Virus record (IMG/VR): IMGVR_UViG_3300035703_000475 | Coordinates: 1 to 20,020 of that record | DNA: 20,020 nucleotides | Direction: 5' to 3' (one strand) | Origin: a virus | Shown here: one piece after another, positions 1-16,673 of the stretch | How the letters are laid out: every line of letters begins with the position of its first letter | Position numbering within the stretch: position 1 is the first letter of the stretch | Made by a program: the position numbers and the translations under genes | The notes under the pieces: generated by a model | What the model saw: the letters and a program-made list of their open reading frames with translations, nothing else | Told to the model about the DNA's origin: nothing | The model's database searches: none

Positions 1-1
1 A

Positions 2-79
2 CTTGACGAAAGAGAACTTATAGATATTGAAGTGTCTGGAAATCATTTGTTTTATGCGAATGATATTCTCACACATAAT
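2..79 (+). mobile_element. Intein C-terminal fragment, gp41-1-like (5' partial)
   Basis: Visible residues include IDIEVSGNHLFYANDILTHN followed by Ser. This is a complete intein block F and G: the hydrophobic IDIEV strand, the NHLFYANDILTHN segment with penultimate His and terminal Asn for Asn cyclisation, and Ser as first C-extein residue (junction 79/80). From memory, the 26 visible residues and the SSSDV extein start agree with the C-fragment of gp41-1, a split intein first found in marine metagenomes. That fragment is 37 residues long, so a split version would start about 33 bases before this window. If contiguous, the N-part would be joined upstream. The insertion site is a conserved helicase motif. 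No endonuclease domain is visible here. Confidence 0.9.
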
Positions 80-391
80 AGTAGTTCTGATGTTGAACTT
101 ACTGATACTAGTGAATCCTTTGGTCTTCCTGCGACTGCTGACCTTATGTTTGCCCTTATTAGCACTGAAGAGTTGGAACAAATGGGTCAGATTATGGTAA
201 AACAATTAAAGAATCGTTATAATGATCCCACTATCTACAAGCGTTTTATTGTGGGTATTGACAGGGCAAAGATGAGACTGTATGATTGTGAACAGTCTGC
301 TCAGAAAGATATACTTGACTCTGGGCAAGATGACGAGTATACTGATGAAGATAAGAAGCCTAAAAAATCATTTGAGGGATTTAAATTTTAA
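2..391 (+). CDS. 41: Replicative DNA helicase gp41, C-terminal part, preceded by intein C-terminus (5' partial)
   Basis: The reading frame is open from the window edge and stops at 389-391. Codons from 80 on encode the last 103 residues of a DnaB/T4 gp41-type hexameric helicase, which unwinds the fork on the lagging strand and recruits primase gp61. The recognisable part is the RecA-core end: SSSDVELTDTSESFGLPATA, then FALISTEELEQMGQ and QIMVKQLKNRYND, followed by an acidic and then Lys-rich tail, as in T4-like phages. The codons before 80 are not helicase but the end of an intein (separate entry). The start lies outside the window, so I cannot tell whether the intein is contiguous or split. 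The stop overlaps the next ATG (TAATG). Identity of the helicase is confident by family knowledge; intein state is unresolved. Confidence 0.92.
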   Translation, partial: LDERELIDIEVSGNHLFYANDILTHNSSSDVELTDTSESFGLPATADLMFALISTEELEQMGQIMVKQLKNRYNDPTIYKRFIVGIDRAKMRLYDCEQSAQKDILDSGQDDEYTDEDKKPKKSFEGFKF

Positions 392-1029
392 TGTTTGAAT
401 TAAATCAAAATTTAAAAGTTAAAGAGGAGTTTGTATTTGATTCTAAAGTTTTTATAATTGACAACTTTTATAAAAATCCAGATATTATTGTAGATTTTTT
501 TCTAAATCAAAAAGCAGATCTCTGGAAAATGGAAGATGAATATCAACCTTCGCATAATGGAATATATTTTGAAGATAGGAAGCATCAGATTAAATCCGAA
601 GAAATACGTGAGGCATACTTTTTTTTACAGAGTTTGTGTCAACAAAAAATTCATTGTTTGAGTGATATTGATACAAATATGACCAAATTTAAAAGAGATT
701 CATTCAATGATTATATTAATTGTTATTGGTCTCCTCACCGTGATGATGGGTATACTGCAGTTGTCTATTTAAATGTAAATGACAATAAGTCAGGAACAAA
801 TCTTTATGAAAGTTTAGATCCAGAGCATGAACCAGTTGATGAATATTCTGAACATTATTATCCATGGAGACCAAAAAGTAAATATAAACTTTTGAAATCT
901 TTAGAACCAAAATATAATAGAATGGTTATGTTTGATGGTAAGAGATTTTTACATGGTGCTAATATTTGTAATGAAGACTATTTTGATCAAATATATCGAT
1001 TAAACCAAGTTTATTTTTTTGAAGAATAG
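391..1029 (+). CDS. Fe(II)/2-oxoglutarate oxygenase-like protein (DUF6445-like)
   Basis: This 212-residue protein has the features of a double-stranded beta-helix Fe/2OG oxygenase. His116 and Asp118 (PHRDDGYTAVVYLN) form the HxD iron motif. A glycine-containing SGTNLYE segment follows. A distal His188 (RFLHGAN) and Arg203 (YRLNQV) lie where the third iron ligand and the 2OG carboxylate-binding residue are expected. The pattern resembles the DUF6445 family; the substrate is unknown. Phage proteins of this fold have been proposed to modify proteins or nucleotides, but nothing here decides that. It starts inside the gp41 stop codon (TAATG). It is visibly more AT-rich than its neighbours (13 G/C in bases 421-480 against 25 in bases 1141-1200), which may mean a separate origin. 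Confidence 0.7.
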   Translation: MFELNQNLKVKEEFVFDSKVFIIDNFYKNPDIIVDFFLNQKADLWKMEDEYQPSHNGIYFEDRKHQIKSEEIREAYFFLQSLCQQKIHCLSDIDTNMTKFKRDSFNDYINCYWSPHRDDGYTAVVYLNVNDNKSGTNLYESLDPEHEPVDEYSEHYYPWRPKSKYKLLKSLEPKYNRMVMFDGKRFLHGANICNEDYFDQIYRLNQVYFFEE

Positions 1030-1031
1030 TC

Positions 1032-1060
1032 TTGACAAGACTCAAAACTAGTTGTAAAAT
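1032..1060 (+). promoter_or_regulatory. Early sigma70-type promoter upstream of mazG
   Basis: TTGACA (1032-1037) is a perfect -35 box. Seventeen bases later comes TAAAAT (1055-1060), a good -10 box directly preceded by TG. Transcription should start near 1067, just before the mazG ATG at 1085. It sits in the only gap between the oxygenase gene and mazG. This is the type of promoter host RNA polymerase reads early in infection. Confidence 0.8.
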
Positions 1061-1084: not shown

Positions 1085-1501
1085 ATGGAAACTGCTAAAC
1101 ACGTTAATTTTGATAAGTATGCTGAGTTTGTGGATGCCGTAACTTCTGATGCATCTAAAGACTTTCTTGCTTTGTCTGACCGACTGGTTGCTCTTGATGA
1201 GAAAGGTGCTAATATTGAACGACTTCTGACCGCTGCTGTTGGTATCAATGCTGAAGGTGGTGAGTTTATGGAAATCGTCAAAAAGATGGTGTTCCAAGGC
1301 AAACCTTATAATGAAGACAACCGTGAGCATCTGATTATTGAGTTGGGTGATATTATGTGGTATGTTGCACAAGCATGTATGGCACTTGATGTGACACTCG
1401 ATGATGTGGTTGCTCGTAATGTCCAAAAACTTCTGAAGCGTTATCCTGAAGGTGCTTTTGATGTTTACTTCTCTGAAAACCGTGCTTCTGATGACCGATG
1501 A
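1085..1501 (+). CDS. mazG: MazG nucleotide pyrophosphohydrolase
   Basis: This 138-residue protein carries the MazG all-alpha NTP-PPase signature: Glu57, Glu60 and Glu63 in AEGGEFMEIVKK, and Glu86 and Asp89 in IIELGDIMWY. These acidic residues bind Mg and the nucleotide phosphates. Family members hydrolyse (d)NTPs to monophosphates and pyrophosphate. In cyanophages MazG has been proposed either to alter host (p)ppGpp signalling or to recycle nucleotides, and the sequence does not choose. It is the first gene behind the early promoter at 1032-1060. The ATG lacks a clear Shine-Dalgarno sequence. Its stop overlaps the next start (ATGA). It has a single MazG domain, unlike the tandem bacterial enzyme. 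Confidence 0.9.
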   Translation: METAKHVNFDKYAEFVDAVTSDASKDFLALSDRLVALDEKGANIERLLTAAVGINAEGGEFMEIVKKMVFQGKPYNEDNREHLIIELGDIMWYVAQACMALDVTLDDVVARNVQKLLKRYPEGAFDVYFSENRASDDR

Positions 1502-1680
1502 CTAAAGAAAAACAAGTAACAGTTAAAATGGATGTTCGAACTGCTGCTACTGTTCGACAAATTCTTTTTGAATCTCAAAAAGGATATACATATGATGAGA
1601 CGAGTGTTCCTCCTCGAATTTCTAATATTCGTGCAGTGATTCTTGACCTTGATGAAAAAATTAGTTCAATTGTAGAATAA
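1498..1680 (+). CDS. Small conserved cyanophage protein, unknown function
   Basis: This 60-residue protein begins KQVTVKMDVRTAATVRQIL and has a second helical part near INSNIR-like residues (ISNIRAVILDLDEKI). It looks like a compact helical protein with no membrane segment, metal site or signal peptide. I recognise the VKMDVRTA pattern as common in T4-like cyanophage genomes but know no function. It is translationally coupled on both sides: its ATG lies in the mazG stop (ATGA) and its own stop overlaps the next ATG (TAATG). It therefore probably belongs to the same early operon as mazG and the membrane protein. Confidence 0.75.
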   Translation: MTKEKQVTVKMDVRTAATVRQILFESQKGYTYDETSVPPRISNIRAVILDLDEKISSIVE

Positions 1681-2720
1681 TGGATTTACTTATGAGTGTC
1701 TGGGAGAAGGAACTCTTTCTCCCTTACATCATCGGCATTATGATTGTCGGTGGTCTAGTCAAACAATACGGTGTGCTGAATGAAGTCTTCGTAGCACTTC
1801 GTAAAACATTCAAGTCAAATCGTCTAGTAGTTGCTGCTACTGCTCTTGCTGGTGGTGTTCTACCCATTGAAGGGCGAGTCGTTATGTCGGCTCCCCTTCT
1901 GGATTCCATCGCCTCAGACAAAGCACAATCTCGTTCCAAGTTTGGTATTGTAGATTATCTTTCTACGCACCACTATTACTGGTGGTCGCCACTTGAGAAG
2001 ACTGTTGTGCTTCCGATGGCAGCATTAGGTCTATCCTATCCTCAAATGCTAGGATATACTGCTGTGCCCCTCATCATCACCCTTGCTTTTGCTGGTGCAT
2101 TTATCTTTGCCTATGTGAAAGAAACTGATGTTGAAATTGTATCTGAGACACGCACATTCAGTTGGAATCGTCTGCTGAAAGGTTGGGCACCTATCGTTGC
2201 TACAATGTGGTTTCTGGTCTGTTATGGCGACCCTGATATGCCCTACCTCTTTTCTTTGTGGTTTGGTGGTCTTGCTGCTTACTATTCTTACATCTGTAAT
2301 GATTGGAAGTGGGGTCGTTATATCAACTGGAAGTTTGCTGGATTTGCTGCTCTTGTTCTTGCTCTTGCAGCAGTCATGGGTGAAATCAAAGAACCTGTAA
2401 TGGAGTATCTTAAAGTTACTTCGCAGCAAGGCGCAGCGGCACTGTATACTGTATCTGTTGTAGGATTCTTGGCATCCTTTGCGATGGGTTCATCCAGTAA
2501 ATATGCGGGTATCGTTGCTATTCTTGCAAAAGCATTTGGTCCTGGATACTTGACATGGTTTCTGTGTGTGGAGTATGCTGGTTACATCATCTCTCCAATG
2601 CACAAGTGCCTGCTGATTGGTCAACAATATTTTGGTACTCCTATTAAGACTTATTATAAAGTTCTTGGTTGGTTGATTGTTGCATTGATTGGGTGGGGAG
2701 CATTAACACTAGCATTTTAA
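1680..2720 (+). CDS. Polytopic membrane protein, DUF401-like (ion-transporter superfamily)
   Basis: This 346-residue protein has about nine or ten hydrophobic segments. Two conserved polar stretches lie inside membrane regions: GGVLPIEGRVVMSAPLL (about 58-74) and ISPMHKCLLIGQQYFGTP (about 304-321). This pairing matches DUF401 proteins, which belong to the wider ion-transporter/gluconate-permease-like superfamily. The likely role is transport of a small solute across the host inner membrane; the substrate cannot be read. It is coupled to its neighbours by TAATG overlaps and sits in the mazG early operon, so it would be made early in infection. Base composition is richer in G+C (27 of 60 in 1741-1800) than the structural genes, closer to a host-like gene. 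Confidence 0.72.
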   Translation: MDLLMSVWEKELFLPYIIGIMIVGGLVKQYGVLNEVFVALRKTFKSNRLVVAATALAGGVLPIEGRVVMSAPLLDSIASDKAQSRSKFGIVDYLSTHHYYWWSPLEKTVVLPMAALGLSYPQMLGYTAVPLIITLAFAGAFIFAYVKETDVEIVSETRTFSWNRLLKGWAPIVATMWFLVCYGDPDMPYLFSLWFGGLAAYYSYICNDWKWGRYINWKFAGFAALVLALAAVMGEIKEPVMEYLKVTSQQGAAALYTVSVVGFLASFAMGSSSKYAGIVAILAKAFGPGYLTWFLCVEYAGYIISPMHKCLLIGQQYFGTPIKTYYKVLGWLIVALIGWGALTLAF

Positions 2721-2842
2721 TGTTCTTTGTAATAGGTATCTTTTTTCTAATTATTGTGGATGATTATCTTTTAATGGCAATTGTTATGGGATTAATTATT
2801 TGGGACATTAGAAAAAAGAACCTAAAAATTAGGGGGAATTAG
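2720..2842 (+). CDS. Tiny membrane protein (40 residues)
   Basis: The ATG overlaps the stop of the transporter-like gene (TAATG), and the frame runs 40 codons to TAG at 2840-2842. The peptide is two short hydrophobic stretches (FFVIGIFFLIIV and LLMAIVMGLIIW) separated by DDY, then a basic tail (RKKNLKIRGN). This fits a small inner-membrane peptide with the C-terminus in the cytoplasm. It might be an accessory subunit of the upstream membrane protein; that is inference from position. Its 3' end overlaps the first ten bases of tRNA-Ala, which is unusual but seen in compact phage genomes. Confidence 0.55.
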   Translation: MFFVIGIFFLIIVDDYLLMAIVMGLIIWDIRKKNLKIRGN

Positions 2843-2903
2843 TTAAACGGTATAACGGGTGCTTTGCAAGCACTTATTAGGAGTTCGATTCTCCTATTCT
2901 CCA
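2833..2903 (+). tRNA. tRNA-Ala (anticodon UGC)
   Basis: A full cloverleaf folds by hand. The acceptor GGGGAAT pairs with ATTCTCC (one G-U), and the D stem is GTTA/TAAC. The anticodon stem is GGTGC/GCACT with loop TTTGCAA, placing TGC at 2865-2867. The T arm AGGAG/CTCCT has loop TTCGATT. The discriminator is A and CCA is not encoded. Length is 71 bases. The acceptor lacks the G3-U70 pair that marks alanine tRNAs for AlaRS: position 3 is G and its partner, third from the 3' end of the acceptor, is T, so the wobble pair is in fact present there. It is read from the early operon. Confidence 0.93.
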
Positions 2904-2926
2904 TTTGCTATTTGCGAATAGCGAAT
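2903..2926 (+). other. Hairpin between the two tRNAs
   Basis: ATTTGCTATT (2903-2912) pairs with AATAGCGAAT (2917-2926) over ten base pairs, one of them U-G, around the loop TGCG. It fills almost the whole spacer between the two tRNA genes. No U-run follows, so it is not a typical terminator. A role as a processing spacer that keeps the two tRNAs from misfolding is inference. Confidence 0.6.
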
Positions 2927-2929
2927 ATT

Positions 2930-3002
2930 GCCCGTGTACTCCAACGGTAGAGAGGGTGGACTTAGAATCCATACAGTGGAAGTTCGAATCTTCTCACGGG
3001 CA
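2930..3002 (+). tRNA. tRNA with anticodon UAG (Leu by anticodon), short variable loop
   Basis: Acceptor GCCCGTG pairs perfectly with CACGGGC, and the discriminator is A (3002). The anticodon stem GTGGA/TCCAT carries loop CTTAGAA, so the anticodon is TAG, reading CUA leucine. The T arm is GGAAG/CTTCT with loop TTCGAAT. The D stem has three pairs plus a C-A mismatch. Length is 73 bases with a variable region of only about five bases. Bacterial leucine tRNAs normally have a long variable arm, so the identity by anticodon is odd. CCA is not encoded. The gene itself is convincing; the amino acid it carries is less sure. Confidence 0.85.
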
Positions 3003-3010
3003 CTAAATAT
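3003..3010 (+). promoter_or_regulatory. Candidate late promoter box CTAAATAT
   Basis: CTAAATAT lies directly after the second tRNA and 13 bases before the ATG at 3023. It resembles the T4-type late box TATAAATA and the same CTAAATA form occurs at 7116. The distance to the start codon is shorter than for the other late boxes here, so it is less certain. Confidence 0.45.
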
Positions 3011-3022
3011 TTAAAAAGTTCT

Positions 3023-4261
3023 ATGGCAATAAGAAATCTACCAAATAGGGGATACATATTTGAAGCTGTTTGGGCAGCTGCTGTTGCTGCTAGATTTTAT
3101 AAAAGATTTGGTGATATAAAAAAACTTCAGTCTAGTAGATTTGCAAAAGGACTTACGGGTGATTATATTGGAAGACTTCCACCTGTATTATATAGAGATG
3201 TGGTTGCTATACTTCAACAGATGTTTTCCACATCATCACATTCTCTGGCAACAAGAACTCAAAATGATGTTAAGTGGAATGTAGACATTCGGGATTATTT
3301 GAACGTTCGAATTAGTGTTCCCGCAGATGTTGATAGATTGTTGATGCAATATGCCAGAAATCGTAATTTTGCAGAAATATCAGATTTTATTCGTTCTGCA
3401 GCAGTAATTGTCAATGGACACTCCACATTAAATTCTAAAGTCAGGGCAGTTGCATTCAACGGATATACTGATACTATAAACGTCACTGCAGATGGTTTAC
3501 TTGGGCAAAGAGATGTAAAAGCAGATGTGTCAGTTACAATTTCAACCCAAGATCCAAACATACAAGATATTCGTCCTTTTGCAGTTTCTTGTAAAGTTCC
3601 TGGTGGAGAACAGTTTGCCCAAGTTAGTGGATATGAGTGGCAAAAATTTGAGGATTTATTTGGACAAATTGGTATTGCTATACCTCCAAACGTACATCAA
3701 CAATGGTTAGAATCGATGCAAGAATATCTAACAGAAGGGGTATTTACTAAAAAGTATGCAACACGACAAGCGATTAAGGCAACAAGAATTCCTCAAAATA
3801 CTAAACTTGCAGCTAAAAGAGTATATCGTAGTGCTGCGAATGCTATGAATTCTAATTTTCCGGTTCAGAATTTTGTGGATTATATAATTCGTGGATTTAG
3901 TAATGGAGTCGAAACTGAACTAGTAAAATTGACTGGTAGAAAGATGGGTGGTGATTTGGTTATGACTGGAGGAAAAACCCTGAAGATAGACCAACAATTT
4001 AGAGACATACTAATGAATTTAAATTATAGTGCTGAATATAAAGATACTGGAGAAGGTGCAAAAATATTAATCAAAGCAGAGGGAATATCAGATTCACTAA
4101 TGCAGTTTAGGTATAAATGGGAAAATAAAAGTAATAAACCATCTAGTAATACTCCTCAAAAAACATATTCAATGTATCCAAGACATTATTTGGAAGCTTT
4201 GGATGGAATGTTTGATATTGATTCAAGAACTCAAAAATTTACTATTTCTCAATCACAATGA
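3023..4261 (+). CDS. 412-residue conserved phage protein, possible PD-(D/E)XK-type nuclease fold
   Basis: I do not recognise a named family. The protein starts RGYIFEAVWAAAVAARFY, an N-terminal helix with Glu14. In the middle come RDVKADVSVTI, then FAVSCKVPGGEQFAQVSG and a helix containing KFEDLFG. The order helix-Glu, strand-Asp, strand with x-x-Lys followed by QFAQVSG is what restriction-endonuclease-like folds show, although the usual acidic residue two before Lys is Ser here. The rest is helical and basic with no membrane segment. A candidate late box precedes it, and it is coupled to the next gene by ATGA overlap, so it may be a late DNA-processing or virion-associated protein. The fold assignment is tentative. 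Confidence 0.7.
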   Translation: MAIRNLPNRGYIFEAVWAAAVAARFYKRFGDIKKLQSSRFAKGLTGDYIGRLPPVLYRDVVAILQQMFSTSSHSLATRTQNDVKWNVDIRDYLNVRISVPADVDRLLMQYARNRNFAEISDFIRSAAVIVNGHSTLNSKVRAVAFNGYTDTINVTADGLLGQRDVKADVSVTISTQDPNIQDIRPFAVSCKVPGGEQFAQVSGYEWQKFEDLFGQIGIAIPPNVHQQWLESMQEYLTEGVFTKKYATRQAIKATRIPQNTKLAAKRVYRSAANAMNSNFPVQNFVDYIIRGFSNGVETELVKLTGRKMGGDLVMTGGKTLKIDQQFRDILMNLNYSAEYKDTGEGAKILIKAEGISDSLMQFRYKWENKSNKPSSNTPQKTYSMYPRHYLEALDGMFDIDSRTQKFTISQSQ

Positions 4262-4485
4262 TAACCGATCAACTTTTTGAACTAATAAAATCATTTGAGT
4301 CTCCATCTAAAAACAAGGGTGTAAGATATAAAGATTTTTTGGCGTATATTTACATGACCTTTGATAAAAAAATTTCATTGTGTAGGAGTGATAAGGAAAT
4401 GAATAAATATAAGAAAATGAGGAATAGTCTCCTCGGATATATTGTTGCAAACGAAAGATCGATAACTACTGAAATCTGTAAGTAA
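4258..4485 (+). CDS. Small basic protein, unknown function
   Basis: This 75-residue protein begins MITDQLFELIKSF and is rich in Lys, Arg and aromatic residues (KDFLAYIYMTFDKKISL). It is soluble and probably all-helical. Both ends overlap their neighbours: the start lies in the stop of the 412-residue gene (ATGA), and its TAA shares an A with the next ATG (TAATG). Such coupling suggests it is made together with the 412-residue protein, perhaps as a partner. I recognise no family. Confidence 0.65.
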   Translation: MITDQLFELIKSFESPSKNKGVRYKDFLAYIYMTFDKKISLCRSDKEMNKYKKMRNSLLGYIVANERSITTEICK

Positions 4486-5753
4486 TGAAAAATTTTTTCC
4501 AATTTTTGTCAGAAGCTTCTGCATCGACTGCAGTTCAACAAGCTCAAAGACTAGGTCTTAAGAGTAATGGGCATGGTGATTGGTATGACAAGACTGGAGA
4601 GTTTGTTGCTAAAACAGTCGGTGGTCAACTAAAGTTTTATAATAAGCGTCAAAAAATTGGACAGAAAGATCCAACACAGTCTGAAAAAGAAAAGAATTTA
4701 TCTCAACCAACACAAGAACCAGCACCGCAACAAGCAGCACCTATTCAACAAGCACCTCCAGAAAATTTTCTTCCCGTAGAAAAAACAAAAGGAACTCTTA
4801 CTATTGCATTTGGTCGTTTTAATCCACCACATCTTGGGCATCTTCAGTTGATGGATACTGCTGCTGCAGCGGCAGAACAGGAGGGTAGTGATTATATGAT
4901 TATTCCTTCACGTAGTCAGGACAAGAAAAAGAATCCTCTAGATGCTGATACAAAGGTTTCTTTAATGCGTCAGATGTTTCCTCAACATAGTGAGAGAATT
5001 ATGAATGATGCAAATACAAAAACTATCTTTGATGTCCTCAAGAAAGCACATAATGATGGATATGCAAATATAAGAATTGTTGGTGGTGCTGATAGAGTTA
5101 AAGAATTTGAAAAATTGTCTAACAACTATAATGGAAATCTTTATCAATTTGATAATATTGAAGTAGTTTCTGCTGGAGACCGTGATCCAGATTCAGAAGG
5201 AGTTGAAGGTCTTTCTGCATCAAGAATGAGACTTGCGGCTGCTGAGAATGATTTCAAAACATTCCGTTCTGGTATGCCAGCAGAAATGAAACCAAAAGAC
5301 GCACGTGCTATTTTTAATACAGTTCGTCAGTCGATGGGAATTCAGGATGAAGTTGTTGAGATTTGGAAAATTGCACCAAAACTTGATTGGAGAAATCTCA
5401 GAGAAAATTATATTCAAGAAAAAATCTATCAAGTTGGTCAATTGGTTGAAAATTTAAATACTGGATTGATTGGTAAAATCATTCGGAGAGGAACTAATTA
5501 TTTAATTTGTGTTACAGAAGATAATATTATGTTTAAGTCGTGGATTAAAGATGTAATGGAGTCTTATCAAGAGAAAAAAATGGATAGAAAAATGAGACTT
5601 CCTGAAAAACCAAATACATTAGTTGGCACAGTTGGATATTTAAAGTACGTAGCACAACAAACACGTGGTTCAGAACTTGGTAAAGAAAACTTAGCTTTTG
5701 GTCAAAAGAGTTTTGGATTGAATTTCATAAATAAGTATAGAAAAAGTAAGTAA
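4485..5753 (+). CDS. HIGH-type nucleotidyltransferase with N-terminal capsid-targeting-like peptide
   Basis: The 422-residue protein has four parts. Residues 1-11, MKNFFQFLSEA, resemble the T4 capsid-targeting peptide (MKTYQEFI.EA) and include LSE|A at 8-11, the cleavage pattern of prohead protease gp21. Residues 29-57 hold a GDWYDKTGEFVAKTVGG motif, followed by a Gln/Pro-rich linker. Residues 105-260 are a cytidylyltransferase/NMN-adenylyltransferase domain: GRFNPPHLGH with His116 and His119, RIVGGADRV, and LSASRMR with Ser244, Ser246 and Arg249. The C-terminal part (about 315-360) looks like a small beta-barrel (TGLIGKIIRRGTNY). Active-site motifs are intact, so it is probably an enzyme that adds a nucleotide to NMN or a similar substrate. 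Cyanophage relatives are often annotated as cytidyltransferase. Packaging in the head is inference. Confidence 0.82.
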   Translation: MKNFFQFLSEASASTAVQQAQRLGLKSNGHGDWYDKTGEFVAKTVGGQLKFYNKRQKIGQKDPTQSEKEKNLSQPTQEPAPQQAAPIQQAPPENFLPVEKTKGTLTIAFGRFNPPHLGHLQLMDTAAAAAEQEGSDYMIIPSRSQDKKKNPLDADTKVSLMRQMFPQHSERIMNDANTKTIFDVLKKAHNDGYANIRIVGGADRVKEFEKLSNNYNGNLYQFDNIEVVSAGDRDPDSEGVEGLSASRMRLAAAENDFKTFRSGMPAEMKPKDARAIFNTVRQSMGIQDEVVEIWKIAPKLDWRNLRENYIQEKIYQVGQLVENLNTGLIGKIIRRGTNYLICVTEDNIMFKSWIKDVMESYQEKKMDRKMRLPEKPNTLVGTVGYLKYVAQQTRGSELGKENLAFGQKSFGLNFINKYRKSK

Positions 5754-7326: not shown

Positions 7327-7487
7327 TTACCTGCTTTGTAACTAATTGGGGAGTAACCATTTTTCTTGGATTATTGTTAACCGCTTCTGAGTGGTTGGCA
7401 AAAACAAAAAAATTTGAGGAAAATGGTTTACTCGACTTAATTACTAATTTTTTAAAAATAATCTTAAGAAAGGAGACTAAAAAATAA
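7323..7487 (+). CDS. Small single-span membrane protein (54 residues)
   Basis: The ATG overlaps the preceding TGA. One membrane segment is clear (WGVTIFLGLLLTASEWLA), followed by a charged stretch (KTKKFEENGLLDL) and an amphipathic helix ending in LRKETKK. Membrane span plus basic tail fits a small inner-membrane protein; a holin-like role is possible but unsupported. The last codons form the left arm of the terminator at 7471-7502, so the gene ends the transcription unit. Confidence 0.62.
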   Translation: MITCFVTNWGVTIFLGLLLTASEWLAKTKKFEENGLLDLITNFLKIILRKETKK

Positions 7488-7502
7488 AAGTCTCCTTTTT
7501 TT
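7471..7502 (+). terminator. Intrinsic terminator
   Basis: AGGAGACT (7471-7478) pairs with AGTCTCCT (7489-7496) across a ten-base A-rich loop and runs into seven T residues. The left arm lies inside the coding end of the 54-residue gene. The next late box begins at the end of the T-run. Confidence 0.85.
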
Positions 7503-7509
7503 ATAAATA
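7502..7509 (+). promoter_or_regulatory. T4-type late promoter TATAAATA
   Basis: A perfect T4 late consensus box, 32 bases upstream of the virion gene ATG at 7541 and directly after a terminator. It is the best late promoter on the left half of the window. Confidence 0.8.
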
Positions 7510-7540
7510 TGAATAGAAAAAGAATTTATAGGTAAAAAAC

Positions 7541-8116
7541 ATGTCTCTTTGGGGCAATAAAGACTCGGTTTATTCTACTGGCACAGTTGCTGTCAATCTT
7601 ACTACCAACACTGTAACTGGAACTGCTGGTGTTGTTACTTTTACTAATGCTGGAATTAATACTGGCAATGTAATCACTGTTGGTGCTGGAGCCACATATG
7701 GTTATGCAGTTATTACTGGATTTACCTCGACGACTATTTCAATAGCTAGCACTTCATATTTTGTTTCTGGATTAACTACCGTCCCTGCTGGTACTTCTTA
7801 TAACATTTCAGAGCAACCAATTTCGACACTGGGAAATTCTGTATATAGAGCTCCTGAATCTAAGACCACTGGATTTTCGACAAGTCCAGTATTCACTGGA
7901 ATTTTTGGTGTAGATCAACTTGAAGTTGCTGCCGCTGCTGTTACCACTGTTGGTGGTAAAAGTGCAGCATATGCAGTTGCACACTCTGGTTGGGTTGGTG
8001 TTACTACATATATTGATACTCACGGAAACCTCAGAGTTAAATCTGAAGTTCTTGTTGCTGGTGGAATTTCCACTACATCAGATGCAAATGATGATGCAAG
8101 ATTTCCAGACAGCTGA
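7541..8116 (+). CDS. Virion structural protein (cyanophage type)
   Basis: This 191-residue protein is rich in Thr, Ser, Gly and Val and appears to be all beta. It begins MSLWGNKDSVYSTGTV, has a central GDVI-like strand region (NTGNVITVGAGATYGYAVITG), a SYNISEQPISTLG segment and ends HSGWVGVTTYIDTHGNLRVKSEVLVAGGIS. I recognise this as a family that recurs in T4-like cyanophages and is usually called virion structural protein; its place in the particle is not known to me. It has a consensus late promoter and follows a terminator, consistent with strong late expression as its own unit, followed by smaller genes. Confidence 0.85.
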   Translation: MSLWGNKDSVYSTGTVAVNLTTNTVTGTAGVVTFTNAGINTGNVITVGAGATYGYAVITGFTSTTISIASTSYFVSGLTTVPAGTSYNISEQPISTLGNSVYRAPESKTTGFSTSPVFTGIFGVDQLEVAAAAVTTVGGKSAAYAVAHSGWVGVTTYIDTHGNLRVKSEVLVAGGISTTSDANDDARFPDS

Positions 8117-8125
8117 TGATATAAT

Positions 8126-8497
8126 ATGAGATTTGATGAATTGAATGAGAGCAACTATTTGCTTTTTGCTATAAAATTCTATGATAATCCTCAGGCTGTG
8201 ACAAAGGAAGATTTTGAGGATGATTTAAAAAGAATAAAATATATAAAAAGGTTATTAAAAAGATATAAAAACACTGGTGAATTGAAAGAACATCTTGTTT
8301 TAAATCATTTAATAGTGTTGTTTAATGTCTTTAATGATGCTGCAGTTCCTTTACTTTTTTACAACATTGAAAAAGATCTTTGGCCAACTTTAAAAAGTTT
8401 TTTAATATTTTTAAATAGACTTCATGAATATCCAAAATCGGATATACATTATGTAAAAGAAGATATATCTTGCTTAAACAAATTAAACTCAATTTAG
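8126..8497 (+). CDS. Conserved phage protein, unknown function (helical)
   Basis: This 123-residue protein begins MRFDELNESNYLLFAIKFYD, has a charged helical middle (FEDDLKRIKYIKRLLKRY) and hydrophobic helices LVLNHLIVLFNVFNDA and KSFLIFLNRL. It looks like a compact all-helical soluble protein. The pattern is familiar from many T4-like and pelagic phages as a short conserved protein encoded near head or tail genes; I believe it corresponds to a viral domain of unknown function but cannot name it surely. It follows the virion gene by nine bases, so it probably shares its late transcript. Confidence 0.75.
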   Translation: MRFDELNESNYLLFAIKFYDNPQAVTKEDFEDDLKRIKYIKRLLKRYKNTGELKEHLVLNHLIVLFNVFNDAAVPLLFYNIEKDLWPTLKSFLIFLNRLHEYPKSDIHYVKEDISCLNKLNSI

Positions 8498-8498
8498 T

Positions 8499-8690
8499 AT
8501 GAATATAGAAAAAATAATCAATATAATTCGACATATAAAAGAAGAATCTTCTATTGCTAATGTTGTCGGTGATGGTTCAAAAGTTTCATTACCACCAACA
8601 CATGAACCTGGAGTTAAAAAAACTTGGAATTATGCAAAGGGTGGAAAAAATTCTCGTAAGTGGTGGTTACAATCTTTAAACGGAAAGTAA
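8499..8690 (+). CDS. Small conserved phage protein, unknown function
   Basis: This 63-residue protein starts with an amphipathic helix (MNIEKIINIIRHIKEE), then GDGSKVSLPPTHEPGVKK and a basic aromatic tail (GKNSRKWWLQSL). The helix, PP motif and (R/K)KWW tail recur in short proteins next to the 123-residue family in cyanophages. It starts one base after the previous stop and ends one base before the next ATG. Function is unknown; a small virion-assembly factor is a guess. Confidence 0.65.
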   Translation: MNIEKIINIIRHIKEESSIANVVGDGSKVSLPPTHEPGVKKTWNYAKGGKNSRKWWLQSLNGK

Positions 8691-8691
8691 A

Positions 8692-9105
8692 ATGTTCTCA
8701 CAAGAATCTAAATTAGCGGTTCTTGAATCTAAACTCGGTATTTATGAAGAACTATCCCGCGAAATGCTTTCTAAATTAGAGGCAGCCGTAGATAAAATTT
8801 CAGAAGGAAATTCAAGAATTGCTACGATTCTTGCAAAACATGACGAAAGAATTGAACAAAGTATTAAGACCGATGAACTTCTTGTTAAGATGATTGAGGA
8901 TTTGAAAAAAGAAAATAAAGAAGATCATATTACAGTTGTAAAAAGAATCGAAACACTAGAAAAAGTAGTCGAAGATCTTAAAAAGTTTAGATGGCAATTT
9001 GGAGCAATACTTGCTGCTGTTTTAATTGGTGTTAATCTTGTACCAGTGGTTAGAAGCTTCTTGACTCCTGCACCTGCCCCTGCTACAATAGAAAGAACGA
9101 AGTAA
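8692..9105 (+). CDS. Coiled-coil protein with one C-terminal membrane segment
   Basis: About 100 residues of heptad-like coiled coil (for example LEAAVDKISEGNSRIATIL and DHITVVKRIETLEKVVEDL) lead to one membrane span (FGAILAAVLIGVNLVPVV, about 102-119) and a short Pro/Ala tail. This resembles XhlA-like phage membrane proteins in layout, although relationship is not shown. The long cytoplasmic coil suggests it anchors or tethers something at the inner membrane. The end of the gene contains the promoter for gp61. Length is 137 residues. Confidence 0.65.
   Translation: MFSQESKLAVLESKLGIYEELSREMLSKLEAAVDKISEGNSRIATILAKHDERIEQSIKTDELLVKMIEDLKKENKEDHITVVKRIETLEKVVEDLKKFRWQFGAILAAVLIGVNLVPVVRSFLTPAPAPATIERTK
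9061..9089 (+). promoter_or_regulatory. Sigma70-type extended -10 promoter for the gp61-nrdAB unit
   Basis: TTGACT (9061-9066), a 17-base spacer and TACAAT (9084-9089), with TG one base before the -10 box (TGCTACAAT). The predicted start is near 9096, about 23 bases before the primase ATG. It lies within the last codons of the coiled-coil gene, so it re-sets early expression downstream of a late block. Confidence 0.75.
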
Positions 9106-9118
9106 TATCTCCTTCATA

Positions 9119-10090
9119 ATGGATTTTGTTGACTCCAAGTACATTGGACTCGTTTCATCACGCTTGCAAAAATTTAAGAGGGTCAAGTCGGATCTCTACA
9201 ACTTCCGCTGCCCTATCTGTGGAGACTCCCAGAAGAACAAGAATAAGACGAGGGGATATCTATATCCTGTAAAGAACAATACTAACTTCAAGTGCCACAA
9301 CTGTGGTGTGAGTATGTCGTTCAATAACTTTCTCAAAGAGATTGATACCGTATTGTATAAACAATACACAATGGAGAAGTTTAAGGAGGGACACACTGGT
9401 AAAAACTTTGTAGTGGATAAACCAAAACTTGAATTTACCAAACCAATTTTTAAAAAGAAACTGGATTTGCCTAAGGCATCAGAGAATCCTGTTGCTAGGG
9501 AATATCTGGAAAAAAGGCAACTTAATCCTGAAAAGTTTTATTTTGCTCACAAATTCAAAGAGTGGACTAATACTCAAAAAGTTACGTTCGACACTATCGG
9601 TAGGGATGAGAGTCGCATTATTATACCAATGTACGATGCTGATAGTAACTTGATTGGTTTTCAGGGAAGAGCACTAGGACCGAACCCTGTTAAATATATT
9701 ACCGTGATGCTTTCTGATGATGCCCCGAAGATTTATGGACTCGACCAAGTTGATTCTTCAAAACCCATTTACATTGTTGAAGGACCCTTCGATTCCACGT
9801 TTGTACAAAATGCTGTTGCTATGTGTGGGTCCGACGTTGATATTGGGTCGTTTGGTTGGGGCAATTATATTTACGTTTTTGATAACGAACCTCGCAATCG
9901 AGAAATCGTCAACCGAATATCAAAAACCATCAACAGAGGCGAAAAGGTGATTATTTGGCCAACATCCATTGAGCAAAAAGATATCAATGATATGGTGCTC
10001 ACTGGACTTAATGTTATGGATGTGTTAAAATCAAATACCTACTCAGGTTTAGAAGCAAAAATTAAGTTTAACAACTGGAAGAAAATATGA
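9119..10090 (+). CDS. 61: DNA primase gp61
   Basis: The 323-residue protein makes RNA primers for lagging-strand synthesis together with helicase gp41, whose gene ends at 391. The N-terminus is a zinc ribbon: Cys31, Cys34 (CPICGDSQ) and Cys59, Cys62 (CHNCG), used to read the priming site. The C-terminal half is a TOPRIM-type catalytic core: Glu221 in YIVEGPFDS, Asp255 in YVFDNEP, and Asp288 and Asp291 (KDINDMV), which bind Mg. Length is close to T4 gp61 (342). It is driven by the sigma70-type promoter at 9061-9089 and its TGA overlaps the nrdA start (ATGA), coupling primase to dNTP synthesis. No clear Shine-Dalgarno precedes the ATG. Confidence 0.93.
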   Translation: MDFVDSKYIGLVSSRLQKFKRVKSDLYNFRCPICGDSQKNKNKTRGYLYPVKNNTNFKCHNCGVSMSFNNFLKEIDTVLYKQYTMEKFKEGHTGKNFVVDKPKLEFTKPIFKKKLDLPKASENPVAREYLEKRQLNPEKFYFAHKFKEWTNTQKVTFDTIGRDESRIIIPMYDADSNLIGFQGRALGPNPVKYITVMLSDDAPKIYGLDQVDSSKPIYIVEGPFDSTFVQNAVAMCGSDVDIGSFGWGNYIYVFDNEPRNREIVNRISKTINRGEKVIIWPTSIEQKDINDMVLTGLNVMDVLKSNTYSGLEAKIKFNNWKKI

Positions 10091-12384
10091 GCAACGGAAC
10101 GAAAGTCGTTAAGAGAAATGGTAAAACTGAACCCCTTGATCTAAATAAACTCCACATTATGGTGGAAGAGGCATGTAAGGACCTCGCAAATGTATCTGCA
10201 TCACAGGTTGAGATGCAGTCTGGTATTCAATTTTATGATGGCATCACAACTGCAGAGATTCAGGAGATTCTGATTCGTTCTGCTTCTGACCTGATTGACC
10301 TGGAACATCCCAACTATCAGTTTGTTGCTGCTCGTCTACTATTGTTTGCCCTCCGTAAGCAATTGTTTGGAAGAATGCATGAGTGCCCCACAGTAAAACA
10401 TCATGTAGAGCGTTGTGTTGGTAGAGGTGTTTATGACCCCGAGATTCTGTCACTGTACTCGGATGAGGAGTTTGAAAAACTTCAGTCGTTCATTGATCAT
10501 AGTCGTGACTATCTGTTTACTTATGCAGGTCTACGTCAGGTCGTTGATAAGTACCTCGTGCAGGATAGAAGCACTGGGGCACTTTATGAGACTCCACAGT
10601 TTATGTACCTTTTGATTGCCGCAACAATCTTCTCAAAGTATCCTAAAGAAACCCGTCTAGATTACGTTAAGAGGTATTATGACGCAATCAGCAAGCACAA
10701 AATCAACATTCCAACCCCCATCATGGCGGGAGTGCGAACGCCACTTAGACAATACGCTAGTTGTGTTCTGGTTGATGTTGATGACACCCTCGATAGTATC
10801 TTTACTAGCGATATGGCTATTGGCAGATATGTTGCACAAAGGGCGGGAATCGGTATCAACGCAGGTCGAATCCGTGGTATCAACAGTAAAATTAGAGGTG
10901 GTGAAGTCCAGCACACTGGCGTTGTACCATTTCTCAAAAAATTTGAAGCGACTGTCCGTTGCTGTACGCAAAATGGCATACGAGGAGGAAGCGCGACGGT
11001 CCACTTCCCAATCTGGCACCAAGAAATCGAAGACATCCTAGTACTAAAAAATAATAAAGGAACCGAAGATAACCGTGTTCGTAAGTTAGACTACAGTATC
11101 CAAATCTCTAAACTTTTCTATGAACGATTTATCCGCAGCGAAGACATCTCACTCTTCTCTCCACACGACGTTCCTGGTTTGTATGATGCTTTTGGTACTG
11201 ATGGATTTGATGAGTTATACCATGTTTATGAACGAGATGAGTCTATTCCAAGAAAAACTATCGCAGCTCAAGAACTATTTCTCTCACTCTTGAAAGAACG
11301 TGCAGAAACTGGTCGTATTTACATTATGAATATTGACCACTGCAACTCCCACTCATCTTTCATCGATAAAGTTGAGATGAGTAATCTGTGCCAGGAAATC
11401 ACTCTCCCAACAAAACCACTTCAACATATTGATGATACTGATGGTGAAATTGCTCTTTGCATTCTTTCTGCTATTAATGTTGGTAAAATTAAGAGTAATG
11501 AAGATCTTGAAATTCTTTGCGATCTTGCTGTTAGGAGTCTCGATGAACTCATTGATTTTCAGGGATACCCCGTCAAAGCAGCAGAAATCGCCACAAGAGC
11601 ACGTCGTTCACTTGGGGTAGGTTTTATTGGTCTTGCCCATTATCTTGCCAAGCACGGTGAACATTATGATGATCCTGGTGCTTGGAAACTAGTTCATGAT
11701 TTAACTGAGGCATTTCAGTATTATCTCATTCAATCAACAGTCAATCTTGCAAAAGAAAAAGGTGCTTGTGAATATTCACATCGCACCAAGTATGGGCAAG
11801 GTATTCTTCCGATTGATACATACAAGAAGGATGTGGATGAAATCGTTCCAAACGAACTGAACTATGATTGGGATAGTCTTAGGGAGCAGGTTAAGCAATA
11901 CGGTGTACGGAACTCAACTTTGTCCGCACAGATGCCATCGGAGAGCAGTTCCGTTGTGTCAAACGCAACCAACGGAATCGAACCTCCTCGCGGATACTTG
12001 TCCATTAAGAAGTCGAAAAAAGGTCCACTTAAGCAAATTGTTCCACAGTATCAGACACTTAAGAACAATTATACGCTTCTTTGGGATATGCCTAGCAATC
12101 GCGGGTATATTCATATTGTTGCTGTTATGCAAAAATTCTTCGATCAAGCGATTTCTGGAAACTGGTCGTATAATCCAGAAAATTATGCCGATAATGAAGT
12201 TCCTACTTCAGTAATGGCACAAGACCTTTTGACTACATATAAGTACGGCTGGAAAACCAGCTACTATCAGAACACACACGATATGAAGAATGATGAGGTT
12301 GAAGAAACTCGTCAAACGTTAGAAAATTTAATGTCCGAAATTCTAGAATCAGAGGAGGAAGATTGTGAGTCTTGTAAGATTTAA
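10087..12384 (+). CDS. nrdA: Ribonucleotide reductase class Ia large subunit (R1)
   Basis: The 765-residue protein reduces NDPs to dNDPs with NrdB. An ATP-cone allosteric domain occupies about residues 5-95. Catalytic positions match E. coli NrdA: Cys226 and Cys458 (redox pair), Asn433, Cys435 (thiyl radical) and Glu437 in SNLCQEI, and Tyr726-Tyr727 in SYYQNT on the radical path. The C-terminal tail CESCKI holds the thioredoxin/glutaredoxin-reduced cysteines, spaced CX2C rather than the CX4C of E. coli. Its ATG overlaps the gp61 stop. Picocyanobacterial hosts are generally known to use a B12-dependent class II enzyme, so this gives the phage its own iron-dependent route. The gene is full length, with no intein. 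Confidence 0.96.
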   Translation: MSNGTKVVKRNGKTEPLDLNKLHIMVEEACKDLANVSASQVEMQSGIQFYDGITTAEIQEILIRSASDLIDLEHPNYQFVAARLLLFALRKQLFGRMHECPTVKHHVERCVGRGVYDPEILSLYSDEEFEKLQSFIDHSRDYLFTYAGLRQVVDKYLVQDRSTGALYETPQFMYLLIAATIFSKYPKETRLDYVKRYYDAISKHKINIPTPIMAGVRTPLRQYASCVLVDVDDTLDSIFTSDMAIGRYVAQRAGIGINAGRIRGINSKIRGGEVQHTGVVPFLKKFEATVRCCTQNGIRGGSATVHFPIWHQEIEDILVLKNNKGTEDNRVRKLDYSIQISKLFYERFIRSEDISLFSPHDVPGLYDAFGTDGFDELYHVYERDESIPRKTIAAQELFLSLLKERAETGRIYIMNIDHCNSHSSFIDKVEMSNLCQEITLPTKPLQHIDDTDGEIALCILSAINVGKIKSNEDLEILCDLAVRSLDELIDFQGYPVKAAEIATRARRSLGVGFIGLAHYLAKHGEHYDDPGAWKLVHDLTEAFQYYLIQSTVNLAKEKGACEYSHRTKYGQGILPIDTYKKDVDEIVPNELNYDWDSLREQVKQYGVRNSTLSAQMPSESSSVVSNATNGIEPPRGYLSIKKSKKGPLKQIVPQYQTLKNNYTLLWDMPSNRGYIHIVAVMQKFFDQAISGNWSYNPENYADNEVPTSVMAQDLLTTYKYGWKTSYYQNTHDMKNDEVEETRQTLENLMSEILESEEEDCESCKI

Positions 12385-16223: not shown

Positions 16224-16673
16224 ATGAGTTATGAAAACCCTTGGAGATTCAATGGGGAAGTTTTTGAGTCTTCTGACATTCAAGATAATTTTGGTTTTGT
16301 ATATCATATACACTGTAATCAAACTGGTCGTAGTTATATTGGTAGAAAGTATTTCTGGTCTTTCCGCACACCAAGAGGAAAATCTAGAAAAGTTAAGTCA
16401 GAGTCCGATTGGAAAACATATTACGGCTCCTGTCCTGAACTCAAAGTCGATGTTAACCTTTGGGGGAAGGAAAGATTTACTAGAACAATCCTCAGTCTCC
16501 ATAAAACAAAAGGACAGTGCAATTACGAAGAAACCAAACAGCTTTTCCTAAATAATGTGTTGATTGAGTCTCTTGACGATGGAACGCCGGCGTACTACAA
16601 TAGCAATATTCTAGGACGCTATATGCGAAAAGATTATGGTAACTTTGGAACAGACTCTTCGCCAAACACATGA
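16224..16673 (+). CDS. GIY-YIG family endonuclease
   Basis: This 149-residue protein has the GIY-YIG core in order: GFVYHI (24-29, Tyr27), RSYIGRKYF (36-44, Tyr38 and Arg41), WKTYYGS (63-69), and an acidic helix CNYEETKQLFLNN (Glu102 or Glu103 as metal ligand). Such domains make nicks or double-strand breaks with one metal ion. There is no recognisable DNA-recognition domain after the core, so it resembles free-standing phage nucleases more than typical Seg homing enzymes. Lys/Arg-rich residues 47-60 may bind DNA. It is the first gene of the right-hand plus unit. Its 3' end overlaps the next gene by 38 bases. It could serve host DNA breakdown, or be a mobile gene. Confidence 0.78.
   Translation: MSYENPWRFNGEVFESSDIQDNFGFVYHIHCNQTGRSYIGRKYFWSFRTPRGKSRKVKSESDWKTYYGSCPELKVDVNLWGKERFTRTILSLHKTKGQCNYEETKQLFLNNVLIESLDDGTPAYYNSNILGRYMRKDYGNFGTDSSPNT

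What the first reader, a model, noticed from the sequence alone, without database searches (positions are those of the whole stretch)
2..391. gp41 helicase carries an intein matching the gp41-1 split intein seen in metagenomes
The sequence shows intein blocks F and G ending in His-Asn followed by Ser, joined to an intact helicase C-extein beginning SSSDV. From memory both match the gp41-1 C-fragment and its native extein. gp41-1 is one of the fastest split inteins known and was described from marine metagenome fragments, with its source phage not firmly assigned. This window would place it in a T4-like cyanophage genome with full context: oxygenase gene, then mazG promoter downstream.
Basis: partly seen in the sequence, partly recalled or inferred. 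Interest (0 to 1): 0.85.

Follow-up and report, generated by a model that had tools for sequence, protein, structure and literature searches.

The report
Half a split intein in cyanophage helicase
The start of this virus fragment is the back half of gp41-1, a self-splicing protein element that biotechnologists already use, sitting in the DNA helicase gene of an uncultured phage of marine cyanobacteria; related fragments show it comes as two separate genes, usually with a DNA-cutting enzyme between them, and has spread repeatedly between phages.

Summary
Window nt 2-79 encode LDERELIDIEVSGNHLFYANDILTHN, identical in all 26 residues to the gp41-1 intein (PDB 6qaz; published IntC), followed by an intact gp41 helicase C-extein (SSSDV..., nt 80-391). 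The window is the whole record and starts inside IntC, so the split state cannot be read from it. Every informative relative is split: in 43 of 43 IMG/VR loci holding both halves, IntN ends in a stop, a 234-1600 nt spacer follows (usually with a GIY-YIG/NUMOD3 homing endonuclease), and IntC is a separate ORF. The three other contigs with the window's exact 79-nt IntC DNA also have it as a separate ORF. No isolate phage in the collection carries it. New here: intein-bearing alleles do not form one clade (AU p=7e-5); third-codon identity is 83% in the intein against 55% in the exteins; all 36 intein-bearing alleles have Ser at +1, whereas 110 of 112 empty alleles have Gly, Ala or Asn. So the element is mobile and apparently brings its own +1 Ser. 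In passing, one contig (L185) encodes gp41 in three pieces with two split inteins. The finding itself is a new member of a known kind.

The parts
2..79 (+). C-terminal 26 codons of a gp41-1-type IntC (blocks F and G, ending His-Asn at 74-79); 5' end cut by the record start
   Evidence: 26/26 identity to PDB 6qaz residues 103-128 and to published IntC
80..82 (+). AGT, the +1 Ser codon of the C-extein (second nucleophile of splicing)
   Evidence: Ser in 36/36 intein-bearing alleles; Gly 97, Ala 11, Asn 2, Ser 2 of 112 empty alleles
80..391 (+). gp41 helicase C-extein, SSSDVELTDTSESFG... to the stop
   Evidence: tblastn to cyanophage gp41 up to 93%, T4 gp41 structure 8dtp, PHROG 19
1..99 (+). stretch identical in two other contigs, L167 (its last 99 nt) and L206 (which differs from nt 100 on); probable assembly fork
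391..1029 (+). DUF6445 / 2OG-Fe(II) oxygenase-like gene directly after gp41
   Evidence: next to gp41 also in isolates Sf-CH5, Sf-CH8 and S-SCSM2R
1032..1060 (+). sigma-70-like promoter match TTGACA-17-TAAAAT before mazG
   Evidence: consensus match only
1085..1501 (+). mazG, pyrophosphohydrolase
   Evidence: PF03819 above cut-off

Best explanation
The window begins in the C-terminal gene of a naturally split intein of the gp41-1 family, inserted in the replicative helicase gene gp41 of an uncultured T4-like cyanophage. Inferred from relatives: the helicase N-terminal piece ending TRSGY carries IntN (first residue Cys) and is made from its own gene, usually followed by a GIY-YIG/NUMOD3 homing endonuclease gene; the second gene starts with Met, encodes the 37-residue IntC and then the helicase C-extein. 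The two proteins bind through the intein halves and splice in trans through Cys1, Asn and the +1 Ser, giving one helicase chain. Shown by comparison: the element sits in many unrelated gp41 lineages and its alleles have Ser at +1 where empty alleles have mostly Gly. Inferred, not tested: the endonuclease cuts empty alleles, and repair copies the locus together with the +1 Ser codon.
For: 26/26 identity to gp41-1 with the native SSS extein. 43 of 43 loci with both halves are split, 42 with the stop directly after IntN. The three contigs with identical 79-nt IntC DNA have IntC as a separate ORF starting MLLKKILK. Endonuclease: PHROG GIY-YIG and other homing families, NUMOD3, invariant Y6, YVG19-21, R30, E75, N93, I-TevI as top fold match. 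Mobility: intein third positions 83% against 55% in exteins, higher in all 351 pairs; identical intein DNA beside 78.5% identical extein DNA in window and L174; 23 label changes on the extein tree, one clade rejected with p-AU 7e-5; nearest relatives of the window lack it. +1 Ser signature.
Against: The split state and the N-half of this very phage are not in the record. Splicing, endonuclease activity and homing are not tested. Little co-conversion is visible beyond the first codons. The nearest IntN relatives have 83-84 of 88 residues of published gp41-1, so the exact IntN was not found. The endonuclease model is of low confidence. The loci are not a random sample.
Confidence: 0.9

Rival explanations
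1. In this phage the intein is continuous (cis-splicing) and only shares its C-terminal end with gp41-1.
For: The record is cut at nt 1, so an upstream continuous frame is not excluded directly. A continuous mini-intein does occur in a remote helicase (L202).
Against: 43 of 43 loci of the gp41-1 type with both halves are split, and the three contigs with identical IntC DNA have it as a separate ORF. L202 is at another site and far in sequence.
Confidence: 0.05
2. The window start is an assembly artefact: intein DNA of one phage joined to the gp41 C-extein of another, intein-free phage.
For: The first 99 nt are identical in L167 and L206, so the window starts at a probable assembly fork; its nearest gp41 relatives lack the intein.
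Against: An empty allele would almost always have Gly at +1, while the window has AGT Ser. The intein-extein junction is inside the 99 nt also seen in L167 and L206, and the differences start only at nt 100, 20 nt into the extein.
Confidence: 0.03
3. A decayed, non-splicing remnant.
For: A broken copy exists in a relative: L182, with IntC cut off after SGNHLF.
Against: All 26 residues equal an intein proven to splice; Asn, the preceding His and +1 Ser are present; the helicase extein is open and conserved.
Confidence: 0.02

Closest known systems
gp41-1 split intein (Dassa et al. 2009; Carvajal-Vallejos et al. 2012; PDB 6qaz and 6riz)
   Same: All 26 visible IntC residues, native SSS C-extein, helicase gp41 as host protein, marine phage origin
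   Different: IntN and the first 11 residues of IntC lie outside the record; in the nearest contig (L167) IntC starts MLL instead of MML and IntN has 83 of 88 residues of the published one
Fractured genes (split intein halves with an endonuclease gene between them; Dassa et al. 2009, known to me by title and from memory, paper not held)
   Same: Relatives have IntN, a separate endonuclease gene and IntC in that order
   Different: Endonuclease here is of the GIY-YIG/NUMOD3 type; the Vsr-like family named for fractured genes resembles, by eye only, the ORF at the second site (L216:3974-5038). Some loci carry extra genes in the spacer (DNA methyltransferase in L178)
Collaborative homing in phages (free-standing endonuclease with a psbA intron in cyanophages, Zeng et al. 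2009, as described in PMC10448857)
   Same: A separate endonuclease gene near a splicing element in a cyanophage, presumed to spread it
   Different: Protein splicing instead of an intron; the endonuclease lies inside the fracture; cutting not tested

Membership tests
gp41-1 split intein | IntC sequence with blocks F and G ending His-Asn and followed by Ser | tested here: met
   26/26 residues of 6qaz, HN at 74-79, AGT at 80-82; first 11 residues of IntC lie outside the record
gp41-1 split intein | Native gp41 helicase C-extein SSSDV at the same site | tested here: met
   native SSS in PMC7090010
gp41-1 split intein | IntN beginning with Cys after TRSGY in the same genome | not testable with these tools
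   outside the record; met in relatives, e.g. L001 and L167
gp41-1 split intein | IntC encoded as a separate gene | not testable with these tools
   start codon lies before nt 1; met in 43/43 relatives with both halves and in L206
gp41-1 split intein | Fast trans-splicing | not testable with these tools
   needs an experiment
GIY-YIG homing endonuclease (spacer ORF of relatives) | GIY-YIG catalytic residues and homing-family match | tested here: met
   PHROG 5123 E=3e-11 and others, NUMOD3, invariant Y, YVG, R, E, N, I-TevI top fold match on a low-confidence model; Pfam's GIY-YIG model was not hit
GIY-YIG homing endonuclease (spacer ORF of relatives) | Cleavage of intein-free alleles | not testable with these tools
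   needs an experiment
T4-like cyanophage | T4-like replication genes with cyanophage-type neighbours and isolate similarity | tested here: met
   gp41, gp61, nrdA, nrdB, mazG; matches only to cyanophage or marine virus records

The most novel reading that the evidence does not exclude
The gp41 helicase loop around TRSGY|SSSDV is a landing zone for several split inteins with different endonucleases, and at least one uncultured cyanophage (L185) builds its replicative helicase from three separately translated proteins by two trans-splicing reactions; the middle protein carries only 12 helicase residues between IntC of a gp41-1-type intein and IntN of a second split intein.
Probability: 0.6. Interest if true: 0.65.

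Novelty: new member of a known kind. Interest (0 to 1): 0.45.

Why it matters
gp41-1 is one of the fastest split inteins and is widely used for joining proteins, yet it was described from metagenome fragments. The comparison places it in long contigs of T4-like cyanophages, gives about 50 natural variants with native exteins, shows that it moves between phages, and shows that its alleles carry the +1 Ser it needs where empty alleles mostly have Gly. The three-piece helicase of L185, if real, would be a natural counterpart of engineered tandem trans-splicing.

Tried and rejected
Looking upstream in the own record: nothing there. Treating contig G001 (L167) as the proven upstream half: its last 99 nt equal window nt 1-99, it ends where the window begins in S-SRM01 coordinates, and no window gene has a homologue in it; but L206 shares the same 99 nt and then diverges, and GC differs (0.33 against 0.37), so the pairing stays open. 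Wide co-conversion of flanking DNA: not seen. A source among isolates: none above 60% identity in IntN among 50,697 phage records. A source among cellular genomes: no relative in the species genomes. The original papers of 2009 and 2012 are not held. Structure model of the endonuclease: low confidence (mean pLDDT 54). A second contig with both split inteins, as in L185: none found.

Full report
What is in the window. The frame starting at nt 2 is open to a stop at 389-391. Its first 26 residues, LDERELIDIEVSGNHLFYANDILTHN, are identical to residues 103-128 of the gp41-1 intein structure 6qaz (6riz differs at one residue) and to the published IntC, MMLKKILKIEELDERELIDIEVSGNHLFYANDILTHN followed by Ser (PMC7895425). 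The next closest solved inteins score far lower (E=2.6e-4 or worse). The frame continues into the C-terminal part of gp41 helicase. The window is the whole 20,020-nt virus record, so nothing upstream can be read from it.

Phage context. Downstream lie a DUF6445 / 2OG-oxygenase-like gene, mazG, a DUF401-type membrane protein, a cytidylyltransferase-like gene, primase gp61, nrdA, nrdB, a SegE-like GIY-YIG gene, a C39-like peptidase and a lysozyme (gp61 also from synteny with annotated isolates). The closest isolate is Synechococcus phage S-SRM01 (82.4% identity over 25% of the window, in order). The oxygenase-like gene sits next to gp41 in cultured Synechococcus phages too (Sf-CH5, Sf-CH8, S-SCSM2R), so that context is ordinary. 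Of eight contigs with the same intein that were tested, four carry photosystem reaction-centre genes.

Relatives show the whole arrangement. A search with IntN gave 52 IMG/VR loci, most of them at 85% identity or more over the full query. L001, from a 153.7-kb contig, shows it in full: a helicase N-terminal piece ending TTRSGY, IntN and a stop (7372-8703); a 221-aa endonuclease ORF (8753-9418); a 147-aa ORF; then IntC starting MMLKKILK joined to SSSDVEL (9968-10390); then mazG. Of 43 loci with both halves, 42 have the stop directly after IntN and one 8 codons later; none is continuous; spacers run from 234 to 1600 nt. Three contigs have IntC DNA equal to the window's 79 nt: L167, L174 and L206. 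L167 and L174 have the full split arrangement, and in L206, which lacks the part further upstream, IntC is a separate ORF; all three start MLLKKILK. I therefore infer that the window's intein is split too.

The spacer enzyme. It matches NUMOD3 above the Pfam cut-off and several PHROG homing-endonuclease families, among them a GIY-YIG family. Y6, Y19-V20-G21, R30, E75 and N93 are invariant in 12 diverse copies; from established knowledge of I-TevI these are the expected catalytic positions. A low-confidence model still has I-TevI as its top fold match. Further ORFs often follow it, for example an N6/N4 DNA methyltransferase in L178. A group of loci with a 234-nt spacer (L156, L159-L161, L198, L199) has lost the endonuclease.

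Mobility. Between 27 intein-bearing loci, third codon positions are on average 83% identical in the intein and 55% in the exteins, and higher in the intein in all 351 pairs. Window and L174 have identical intein DNA (79/79) but extein DNA that is 78.5% identical. On a tree of the C-extein with the first codons left out, the 32 intein-bearing alleles need 23 changes (shuffled mean 29.1; well supported branches force at least 7), and one clade is rejected (p-AU 7e-5). The nearest relatives of the window's gp41 lack the intein.

The +1 residue. All 36 distinct intein-bearing alleles have Ser at +1 (AGT in 29), the residue that splicing needs (for the requirement). Of 112 empty alleles 97 have Gly, 11 Ala, 2 Asn and only 2 Ser. 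The element thus seems to convert the first codon of the C-extein on entry and to leave a Gly-to-Ser change in the spliced helicase. Wider flanks show little extra similarity, so the converted tract is short or old.

Where gp41-1 occurs. No isolate phage among 50,697 records has IntN above 60% identity, and the scan of species genomes of bacteria and archaea found no relative. The papers in the library call gp41-1 cyanophage-like and cite metagenomes. The record start looks like an assembly fork: the last 99 nt of the 74.5-kb contig G001 (L167) equal window nt 1-99, and so do 99 nt of L206, which then diverges. G001 shares no gene with the window and ends where the window begins in S-SRM01 coordinates, but its GC differs and the fork has at least two exits, so I leave the pairing open.

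Beyond the window. In L185 gp41 is in three clean ORFs: 148-1479 (N-extein and gp41-1-type IntN), 2287-2703 (IntC, then SSSDPELTDTSE, then IntN of a second intein; this protein passes the Pfam Intein_splicing cut-off) and 2710-3255 (second IntC and the helicase C-terminus). The second intein occurs without gp41-1 at the same site in L213-L217; in L216 it is split by a different ORF (3974-5038) whose family was not established. L185 is the only contig with both, so a chimera is not excluded, but its 12 middle codons differ synonymously from L213, which argues against a simple join with that contig. Engineered three-segment trans-splicing with a 13-residue middle piece is published (PMC12707363); I found no report of a natural one in the library, which is not exhaustive.

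Verdict. The window is a new, truncated member of a known kind. The interest lies in the wider comparison: repeated gain, the +1 Ser signature, and stacked split inteins.

Noticed in passing
L185:148-3255 (IMGVR_UViG_3300005512_003673): gp41 in three ORFs with two different split inteins 12 residues apart; the middle protein is IntC1 - SSSDPELTDTSE - IntN2. Single contig only.
   Followed up: partly
L213-L217; L216:2543-5561: A second split intein family in gp41 at TSE|C...N|SFGLPATAD; in L216 an ORF of unestablished family (3974-5038) that by eye resembles Vsr-like (EDxHD) endonucleases lies between the halves.
   Followed up: partly
L085:6173-8438: gp41 with an additional continuous mini-intein in the Walker A loop (LAG|C...HN|TGVGKS) besides a remote split intein at the gp41-1 site without an endonuclease between its halves.
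   Followed up: no
L083:2004-3531 and L084: A related intein with its own GIY-YIG-like ORF inserted a few residues upstream, at TTR|SGYGNSDV.
   Followed up: no
L178:1591-2394, L179, L192; L174:9093-9653: Extra genes in the intein spacer after the endonuclease: an N6/N4 DNA methyltransferase and a 183-187-aa ORF without family match. The fracture may serve as a site for cargo genes.
   Followed up: partly
L156, L159-L161, L198, L199: Spacer of only 234 nt without endonuclease, holding what looks like the end of the cargo ORF seen in L174 and L206: probably a deletion derivative.
   Followed up: no
L182:4565-5740: IntC breaks off after SGNHLF into unrelated sequence and no helicase C-extein follows: a broken or rearranged copy.
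   Followed up: no
L136:7214-7279: Intein-free gp41 with AGT Ser at +1 (TRSGY|SSSDV), one of only two such among 112; possibly a scar left by intein loss.
   Followed up: no
L086:7247-8417: A remote split intein at the same gp41 site has an HNH_3 endonuclease in the spacer instead of GIY-YIG.
   Followed up: no
window 1680-2720: DUF401-type membrane protein next to mazG, matching PHROG 14035 of unknown function.
   Followed up: no
window 16224-16673: SegE-type GIY-YIG gene in the window itself, followed by C39-like peptidase and lysozyme genes; not the intein-spacer endonuclease.
   Followed up: no
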